From Corynebacterium amycolatum SK46 (GTDB lineage Bacteria; Actinomycetota; Actinomycetes; Mycobacteriales; Mycobacteriaceae): a DNA stretch of 64,000 nucleotides. Of the stretch, positions 58,929-63,593 are shown piece by piece. Under the pieces are notes generated by a model. The model worked only from the letters and a program-made list of their open reading frames with translations. It did no database searches and had not been told where the DNA came from. A program made the position numbers and the translations under genes. The first letter of the stretch is position 1; the number at the start of each line of letters is the position of its first letter. Location: assembly GCF_000173655.1 (NCBI RefSeq), contig NZ_ABZU01000002.1:62001-126000 (forward strand), given 5' to 3'.

Positions 58929-60683
<1,755 letters not shown>

Positions 60684-60697
60684 TTACGGTAGTAATC

Positions 60698-61090
60698 GTG
60701 AACCACAACTCTTTCTCATCCATGCCGCGGGATCCGTTCGAAGGAGACCCCAATGACCCGGCAAGCTTTCTCGAGCCGGATGAGCCGTTTGCTCCACTGA
60801 CAGACCAGGAACGTCGAGAGGTTCTTGAAGATCTGGCCGCAGTTCGCCTATTCCGCACCGCTTTGAGCCCAGAGGGATTACTGGGCGTCTGCATGTTGTG
60901 TGAGGACTGCGGTGACGAGCACTTTTACAACTGGGAAGTCTTGGAAAACCACTACCTGATGCTCCTGTCTGGACAGGCATCTCCGGTTCACGAACCGCAA
61001 TTCGATCCAGACCCCTCCCGTTACGCCCCATGGGATTACTGCGCAGGCTTTGTCGACGGTCTGCGTTCTCGCCGACCTGGCCGTTTCTAA
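60698..61090 (+). CDS. DUF5319 family protein with a Cys cluster
   Basis: A 130-residue protein of the actinobacterial DUF5319 family, equivalent to Rv3412-type genes beside guaB in mycobacteria. The GTG start at 60698 (VNHNSFSSMPRDPFEGDPNDPASF) is chosen; ATG 60722 is an alternative. A conserved middle, GVCMLCEDCGDEHFYNWEVLENHYLMLL, has CxxCxxC, and DYCAGFVDGLRSRRPGRF ends the protein, so a metal site is possible. No ribosome site precedes the start, and TACGGT at 60685-60690 suggests a leaderless mRNA. Function unknown. Confidence 0.82.
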   Translation: MNHNSFSSMPRDPFEGDPNDPASFLEPDEPFAPLTDQERREVLEDLAAVRLFRTALSPEGLLGVCMLCEDCGDEHFYNWEVLENHYLMLLSGQASPVHEPQFDPDPSRYAPWDYCAGFVDGLRSRRPGRF

Positions 61091-61227
61091 AAATTTGGTA
61101 AGAGTTTGACGGAATTGTTTGCGTAGTATCCCGGCTGGCCTCCTTAGGTTTACCAACCGTTCATTGTTGGCCTCCACACTTGAGCTCACTGCTTCAAGAA
61201 AGCTCAATGAAGGAGACATCAATTCCG

Positions 61228-61551
61228 ATGACGTACATCGACCACTTGCCCGGGCCCAATGCGGATTTGTGGGATTGGCAGCTGCACGGCTCTTGCCGCG
61301 GGCAGGACTCCGCGACCTTCTTCCACCCGGAAGGCGAGCGCGGACGCGCACGCAGCCTGCGTGAAGCCCGTGCGAAGGCTATCTGCCGTTCTTGCCCTGT
61401 TCTTATGCAGTGCCGTAGTCACGCACTCAAGGTTGGTGAGCCATACGGTGTCTGGGGCGGTCTCAGCGAATCTGAACGAAATGAAATCCTTCGAGCTAAG
61501 CCGGCCGCACGTGAACACGAACTTGAACGCGTTCTAGTTACTGCCATGTAG
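61228..61551 (+). CDS. whiB3: WhiB-family iron-sulfur regulator, WhiB3-like
   Basis: A 107-residue [4Fe-4S] redox-sensing transcription factor that partners sigma factor A. Four Cys are in place: HGSCRGQD, then AICRSCPVLMQC (CxxC...C spacing). The GVWGG turn (EPYGVWGGLSESERNEIL) and basic C-terminus follow. ATG 61228 aligns with mycobacterial WhiB3 (LPGPNADLWDWQL shortly after the start); AAGGAG lies 12 bases upstream, and ATG 61207 is an alternative. sigD and rsdA, expected next to it in relatives, are missing. Confidence 0.93.
   Translation: MTYIDHLPGPNADLWDWQLHGSCRGQDSATFFHPEGERGRARSLREARAKAICRSCPVLMQCRSHALKVGEPYGVWGGLSESERNEILRAKPAAREHELERVLVTAM

Positions 61552-61669: not shown

Positions 61670-63593
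<1,924 letters not shown>

What the first reader, a model, noticed from the sequence alone, without database searches (positions are those of the whole stretch)
61091..61227. sigD-rsdA missing between the DUF5319 gene and whiB3
In C. glutamicum and M. tuberculosis, as I recall, sigD and its anti-sigma gene rsdA lie between the guaB/DUF5319 side and whiB3. Here only 137 bp separate DUF5319 and whiB3, with no room for either. SigD in C. glutamicum controls mycomembrane functions, so loss would be interesting in a lineage with altered or absent mycolates (for example the C. amycolatum group). Species identity is not shown by the sequence.
Basis: partly seen in the sequence, partly recalled or inferred. 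Interest (0 to 1): 0.6.

Follow-up and report, generated by a model that had tools for sequence, protein, structure and literature searches.

The report
Envelope stress sigma factor lost
A skin-type Corynebacterium that can no longer make mycolic acids has also cleanly lost the sigma factor that normally guards its mycolic-acid outer layer, yet it keeps enzymes of the kind that attach mycolic acids, so the two losses are linked but not strictly.

Summary
The gap is real: 137 bp (61091-61227) separate DUF5319 from whiB3. In 90 SigD-bearing genomes measured, the gap is 1.6-3.5 kb and holds sigD-rsdA. No SigD orthologue was found elsewhere in the window's genome. It is a clean deletion shared by the amycolatum/lactis clade (7 genomes, one branch); the sister xerosis group keeps sigD.

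The window's genome also lacks Pks13, so the mycolate idea fits. Of 235 good genomes of the genus, 8 lack both, 5 only SigD (one at a contig break), 4 only Pks13. On a tree, 2 of 3 SigD losses fall on the 3 Pks13-loss branches (P about 0.003; few events; a pair test is not significant). Coupling is not strict: a urealyticum-like clade lost SigD but keeps Pks13, and a kroppenstedtii-like clade lost Pks13 but keeps SigD under purifying selection.

Beyond the brief: the window's clade keeps mycoloyltransferase-like genes under purifying selection without Pks13, and the sigma-D site found at the PS1-neighbouring gene in 4 of 4 close relatives is absent there (0 of 6 genomes). In the kroppenstedtii-like clade the near-invariant rsdA promoter reads GAC for GAT (4 of 4).

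The parts
61091..61227 (.). deletion scar: spacer between DUF5319 and whiB3, consisting of the kept whiB3 leader; ancestral rsdA-sigD missing
60698..61090 (+). DUF5319 gene, left flank of the deletion
   Evidence: PF17252 3.7e-51
61228..61551 (+). whiB3 (WhiB-family regulator; the name whiB3 is from position and recall), right flank
   Evidence: PF02467 3e-25; orthologue kept next to sigD in relatives
58929..60461 (-). guaB (IMP dehydrogenase), used as tree marker and anchor
   Evidence: PF00478 3.3e-157
61670..63274 (-). groEL, used as tree marker and anchor
   Evidence: PF00118 3.8e-74

Best explanation
The ancestor of the amycolatum/lactis clade lost the envelope-stress pair sigD-rsdA by one clean deletion, on the same branch of the tree on which it lost Pks13. 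Shown: the absence, the clean edges, the single branch, the missing fadD32-pks13-accD4 interval, and the missing sigma-D site at the kept mycoloyltransferase-like gene. Inferred: without corynomycolates the mycomembrane signals that sigma-D answers and part of its regulon became pointless, so selection on sigD relaxed and the pair was lost; remaining envelope genes now run from other promoters. The order of the two losses cannot be read from the data. The coupling is a tendency, not a rule.
For: Locus and genome-wide absence. One branch holds all 7 clade members, SH-aLRT 100. Pks13 absent from the own genome with all 7 candidates scored; C. glutamicum control over cut-off. The interval that in C. 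xerosis G237 holds FadD32 (over NCBIfam cut-off), Pks13 (over cut-off) and a carboxyltransferase (AccD4 position) holds DUF711 and two TM2-domain ORFs in the own genome. A second, distant lineage, G123 (probably C. otitidis, by elimination), has the same double loss with a 196-bp gap. 2 of 3 SigD-loss events fall on the 3 Pks13-loss branches, P 0.0027 by length-weighted placement. Published sigma-D targets in C. glutamicum include pks, fadD2, cmt1-3, cop1 and lppS (PMC5508688, passages; PMC6338062, passages and Discussion part 1). Sigma-D site upstream of the PS1-neighbouring gene: 4 of 4 close relatives, 0 of 6 clade genomes; also 0 of 5 at the clade's second copy.
Against: SigD is lost without Pks13 loss in the urealyticum-like clade (4 genomes) and in 6 good genomes of two other genera; Pks13 is lost without SigD loss in the kroppenstedtii-like clade (4) and in G251 and draft G282. 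A test on independent pairs of the tree gives p 0.5 and cannot reach 0.05 with so few events. The P of 0.0027 drops G205 (contig break) and G236 (77% complete). SigD in the kroppenstedtii-like clade is under strong purifying selection without Pks13, so SigD is not useless without mycolates. The clade keeps mycoloyltransferase-like genes, so not all targets are gone.
Confidence: 0.6

Rival explanations
1. Unrelated loss: sigD-rsdA is simply a dispensable pair that is dropped now and then in Mycobacteriaceae, and the two coincidences with Pks13 loss are chance or reflect general gene loss in host-bound lineages.
For: At least three SigD losses happened with Pks13 kept: the urealyticum-like clade, genus g7 and some genomes of genus g29. 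Only three events of each kind fall in the genus tree; pair test p 0.5.
Against: Length-weighted P 0.0027 for the overlap. SigD is otherwise kept in 222 of 235 good genomes of the genus.
Confidence: 0.32
2. Replacement: another ECF sigma factor took over envelope stress, for instance the orphan ECF beside a GTPase gene (L007, C47:209065-209250), or SigH, which can use sigma-D promoters weakly in C. glutamicum.
For: The own genome still has seven sigma factors, one of them an orphan ECF. Partial substitution by SigH in a sigD deletion is reported (PMC6338062, Discussion part 1).
Against: The orphan is no closer to SigD than the other ECFs are (36 bits). Among the stretches fetched it was found only in G235; those stretches may have missed it elsewhere.
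Confidence: 0.07
3. Artefact: assembly loss or SigD moved elsewhere in the genome.
For: The assembly is a draft of 48 contigs.
Against: The junction lies inside a long contig and recurs in 7 genomes, two of them with the locus on a single closed-size contig (G005, G089); no SigD-grade hit in the genome.
Confidence: 0.01

Closest known systems
sigD-rsdA envelope-stress module of Corynebacterium glutamicum (PMC5508688, PMC6338062, PMC11175481: passages; Discussion part 1 of PMC6338062)
   Same: Same place in the chromosome in relatives (between whiB3 and DUF5319), same rsdA promoter inside sigD (GTAAC-15 nt-CTCGAT) in 98 of 103 loci; that paper reports 37 of 38 species.
   Different: Absent here; in the kroppenstedtii-like clade it is present but with CTCGAC (4 of 4).
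[quoted passage not shown]
   Same: Some corynebacteria lack sigD.
Mycolate-less corynebacteria: C. amycolatum, C. lactis, C. kroppenstedtii, C. otitidis lack fadD32-pks13-accD4 (PMC5936774, PMC8733736, PMC9709149: passages)
   Same: The own genome lacks Pks13 and the interval at the same place, next to PS1.
   Different: Here SigD is scored too: gone in the amycolatum/lactis clade and the otitidis-like genome, kept in the kroppenstedtii-like clade.
Mycoloyltransferases (C. glutamicum PS1, structure 6sx4; Ag85)
   Same: Own PS1 homologue matches 6sx4 over residues 121-710 (3.9e-194) and keeps the GxSxG serine and the H-W motif; LGFP repeats.
   Different: It sits in a genome without Pks13, so its donor cannot be an ordinary corynomycolate.

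Membership tests
SigD-RsdA module | SigD orthologue in the genome | tested here: not met
   No match at 1e-15, 10 of 10 candidates scored; best own ECF 43.7 bits against 219-266 for true SigDs
SigD-RsdA module | RsdA orthologue | tested here: inconclusive
   Not in the window. Genome-wide only PF16751 was tried; it does not reach its cut-off even in the C. glutamicum control, and the RsdA alignment A2 was not run on the genome
SigD-RsdA module | place between DUF5319 and whiB3 | tested here: not met
   137 bp only
Mycolate-less lineage | Pks13 absent | tested here: met
   Best own match 44 bits against a cut-off of 2100; C. glutamicum control over cut-off
Mycolate-less lineage | fadD32 and accD4 absent | tested here: inconclusive
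   Missing from the syntenic interval; not searched genome-wide. Reported absent in C. amycolatum (PMC9709149, passage)
Mycolate-less lineage | no corynomycolates in the wall | not testable with these tools
   chemistry; reported for C. amycolatum and C. lactis (PMC8733736, passage)
Mycoloyltransferase (PF00756) | fold family and end-to-end match to a known enzyme | tested here: met
   PF00756 in three own genes of the cluster; PS1 6sx4 3.9e-194
Mycoloyltransferase (PF00756) | catalytic Ser and His (triad recalled from Ag85; the Glu was not checked) | tested here: met
   GISMG/GLSMG serine and H-W/H-D motif present in the three own genes
Mycoloyltransferase (PF00756) | transfers mycolates | not testable with these tools
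   no assay

The most novel reading that the evidence does not exclude
In corynebacteria without mycolates the mycoloyltransferases were kept and turned to another acyl donor, so that a mycolate-free outer envelope is still built. Sigma-D guards that envelope in the kroppenstedtii-like clade (where its site upstream of such a gene is intact), while the amycolatum clade runs it without sigma-D.
Probability: 0.3. Interest if true: 0.7.

Novelty: new member of a known kind. Interest (0 to 1): 0.5.

Why it matters
Sigma-D is read as a monitor of the mycomembrane. These lineages are natural tests of that: lost twice together with Pks13, lost elsewhere with Pks13 kept, and kept once without Pks13 under strong purifying selection. 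They separate what sigma-D needs from what it merely regulates. The kept, constrained mycoloyltransferase-like genes in Pks13-less bacteria ask what those enzymes do there, which a biochemist can test directly.

Tried and rejected
PF16751 as an RsdA test: rejected, it does not pass its cut-off in the C. glutamicum control. A SigD replacement by the orphan ECF: not supported, not excluded. The regular expression missed many SigD rows because it demanded Asn-Glu; replaced and by a plain DNA count. The loose sigma-D motif (spacer 14-18) over whole stretches finds sites inside genes too, above the shuffled mean in several (own 5 against 1.5, xerosis 4 against 0.67; lactis-like 1 against 1.7), so only sites upstream of the gene with spacer 16-17 were counted. 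Rows dropped: G205 (contig ends on both sides of the gap), G189, G204 and G236 (53, 77 and 77% complete) from the event counts; G048's GAC is a one-codon offset. The tree call counts 4 changes for each trait because it includes G205 and G236.

Limits. In one search at most 13 candidates per genome were scored (G089 13 of 19, G090 13 of 18, G123 13 of 20, G235 13 of 16, G078 13 of 19, G157 13 of 15, G227 13 of 17, G228 13 of 20), at most 8, and for Pks13 1 or 2; absence outside the inspected locus is therefore firm for G000, G005, G082 and G194, and likely for the rest. The 116 genomes of the tree were picked by me from listed places, not drawn at random; the tree is a quick LG+G4 tree of GuaB and GroEL, and 18 rows lack one of the two markers or part of it (one search kept 111 GuaB and 101 GroEL rows).

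Full report
Observation. DUF5319 ends at 61090, whiB3 starts at 61228, and 137 bp lie between. The flanking genes are confirmed by Pfam, and profiles of SigD and RsdA find nothing in the window.

Whole genome. The window's genome (2,513,912 bases, 48 contigs, 100% complete) has seven sigma-70 ORFs over the Pfam cut-off. Four reach named NCBIfam cut-offs (SigA-type, SigB, SigE, SigH-type). One exceeds an unnamed sigma model and is next closest to SigC (188 of 219 bits), one is nearest SigM but under cut-off, and one is an orphan ECF. None is SigD: at most 43.7 bits with the SigD profile, where three true SigDs score 219-266. RsdA could not be tested genome-wide, because PF16751 fails in the C. 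glutamicum control.

Locus in relatives. Named records: L010 ('C. vitaeruminis 1285_CVIT'), L011 (C. sp. S30M_St_31) and L012 (C. lactis S064) lack the pair; L013 (C. xerosis), L014, L015, L016 and L017 have it, L014 with sigD split by a frameshift. Contig lengths tie these to G235, G194, G090, G237, G069, G167, G168 and G110. Over 116 fetched loci, 103 have SigD. The DUF5319-WhiB3 gap is 1556-3549 bp in 90 SigD-bearing genomes and 139-196 bp in 8 SigD-less ones. The 137 bp are the old whiB3 leader.

Genus-wide counts. SigD (profile A3, E up to 1e-15): 227 of 242 genomes, 222 of 235 good ones. Pks13 (NF040607, E up to 1e-100): 228 of 242, 223 of 235 good ones. Among the 235 good genomes, 8 lack both (G000, G005, G082, G089, G090, G123, G194, G235). 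Five lack only SigD (G078, G157, G227, G228, and G205, whose gap falls on contig ends). Four lack only Pks13 (G087, G125, G136, G202), and 218 have both.

Names by inference. G227 (contig of 2,369,219 bases) and G087 (2,446,804) fit my recall of the C. urealyticum DSM 7109 and C. kroppenstedtii DSM 44385 genome lengths. G123 is C. otitidis by elimination from the species reported to lack the operon (PMC5936774, PMC8733736, passages). The window is consistent with C. amycolatum. None of these four is shown by a named record.

Tree. On a GuaB-GroEL tree of 116 genomes the seven amycolatum/lactis genomes form one branch (SH-aLRT 100). Their neighbours (nine rows, xerosis group and others) have both genes, G069 with the frameshift. 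G123 lies far away, and the urealyticum-like and kroppenstedtii-like clades lie on separate branches. Dropping G205 and G236, there are three SigD and three Pks13 losses, two shared; random placement by branch length gives at least two shared in 0.27% of draws. The independent-pairs test gives p 0.5 and cannot be significant with four pairs.

Beyond the genus. In 401 genomes of the family, the good genomes outside Corynebacterium without SigD are G247 (genus g7) and G388, G415, G467, G500, G522 (g29); all six have Pks13. G276 (g7) has only a weak hit (4.2e-18). Pks13 is missing in G251 (g11) and in draft G282 (g17), both with SigD (only 8 SigD candidates per genome were scored). So neither gene needs the other.

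Mycolate locus. In C. xerosis G237 the interval next to PS1 encodes FadD32 (914.9 of 875 bits), Pks13 (2334.9 of 2100) and a carboxyltransferase at the AccD4 position. The own genome has DUF711 and two TM2-domain ORFs there, between a POT transporter and a cutinase-like gene that both match xerosis. GlfT2 and a UbiA-family gene are kept beside it.

Kept mycoloyltransferase-like genes. The own genome has four PF00756 matches at 1e-10, three of them at C44:80221-89301. The largest matches C. glutamicum PS1 (6sx4) from residue 121 to 710. All three keep the nucleophile serine and the C-terminal histidine (triad recalled, Glu not checked). dN/dS within the clade is 0.04-0.11 for cmtA (5 genomes), 0.05-0.13 for cmtB (3 genomes) and 0.07 for PS1 (one pair); some dS values exceed 1. 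G123 keeps one diverged PS1-like gene whose histidine aligns to arginine. Searches that paired mycolate-less species with these enzymes gave papers in whose passages I saw no comment on this; I read passages, not whole papers.

Sigma-D sites. With the published elements (-35 GTAAC A/G, -10 GAT; PMC6338062), the short mycoloyltransferase gene beside PS1 carries a site within 450 bp upstream in 16 of 30 SigD-bearing genomes, against 0 of 13 such genes in 8 SigD-less genomes and 0 of 28 PS1 genes. Shuffles give 0.0045 sites per region (19 regions, single-base shuffles). The closest relatives of the clade have it in 4 of 4 (G237, G070, G206, G226), the clade in 0 of 6 at this gene and 0 of 5 at its second copy. 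Against a simple reading, 14 of 30 SigD-bearing genomes lack the site too, most of those related to the urealyticum-like clade among them.

The SigD keeper without Pks13. In the kroppenstedtii-like clade SigD has dN/dS 0.02-0.05 in 5 of 6 pairs (0.31 in the closest pair, with 4 and 4 changes), and the mycoloyltransferase gene keeps its sigma-D site in the two genomes looked at (G087, G202). The rsdA promoter, which lies inside the sigD reading frame, reads GTAAC-15-CTCGAT in 98 of 103 loci, CTCGAC in exactly these 4, and has a changed -35 in G060. PMC6338062 reports 37 of 38 species conserved without, in the parts I read, naming the exception.

Judgement. The deletion is certain. Its tie to mycolate loss is likely but rests on two shared events. 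Sigma-D is neither needed for mycolates nor made useless by their absence. The searches showed no paper that links sigD loss to mycolate loss; subscription papers, among them Patek and Nesvera 2011, were not available.

Noticed in passing
G000:C44:80221-89301 (L147, L148): Three mycoloyltransferase-like genes kept under purifying selection in a genome without Pks13.
   Followed up: partly
L041-L044 (kroppenstedtii-like clade): rsdA promoter inside sigD has CTCGAC instead of CTCGAT in 4 of 4; three of the four have another GTAAC...GAT site about 620-690 bp upstream of sigD with a shorter spacer.
   Followed up: partly
L036, L037, L039 (urealyticum-like clade): whiB3 is missing together with sigD-rsdA between DUF5319 and groEL; in L037 and L039 the place is filled by sequence whose six-frame readings share repeated phrases.
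   Followed up: partly
L007 1213-1758 (G000:C47, near 209065): Orphan ECF sigma factor beside a GTPase gene and a membrane-protein ORF; 97% identical copy in G235 (L199).
   Followed up: partly
L014 7488-8080, G069: sigD split by a frameshift in one xerosis-group genome: sequencing error or a decaying gene.
   Followed up: no
L152 (G123, C3:394884-396554): PS1-like protein whose catalytic histidine aligns to arginine, in the otitidis-like genome.
   Followed up: partly
L033 (G231), L034 (G166): DUF5319 is not found although sigD-rsdA is present.
   Followed up: no
loci of G010, G011, G024, G027, G028, G112, G117, G133, G165, G188, G207: whiB3 not detected beside an intact sigD.
   Followed up: no
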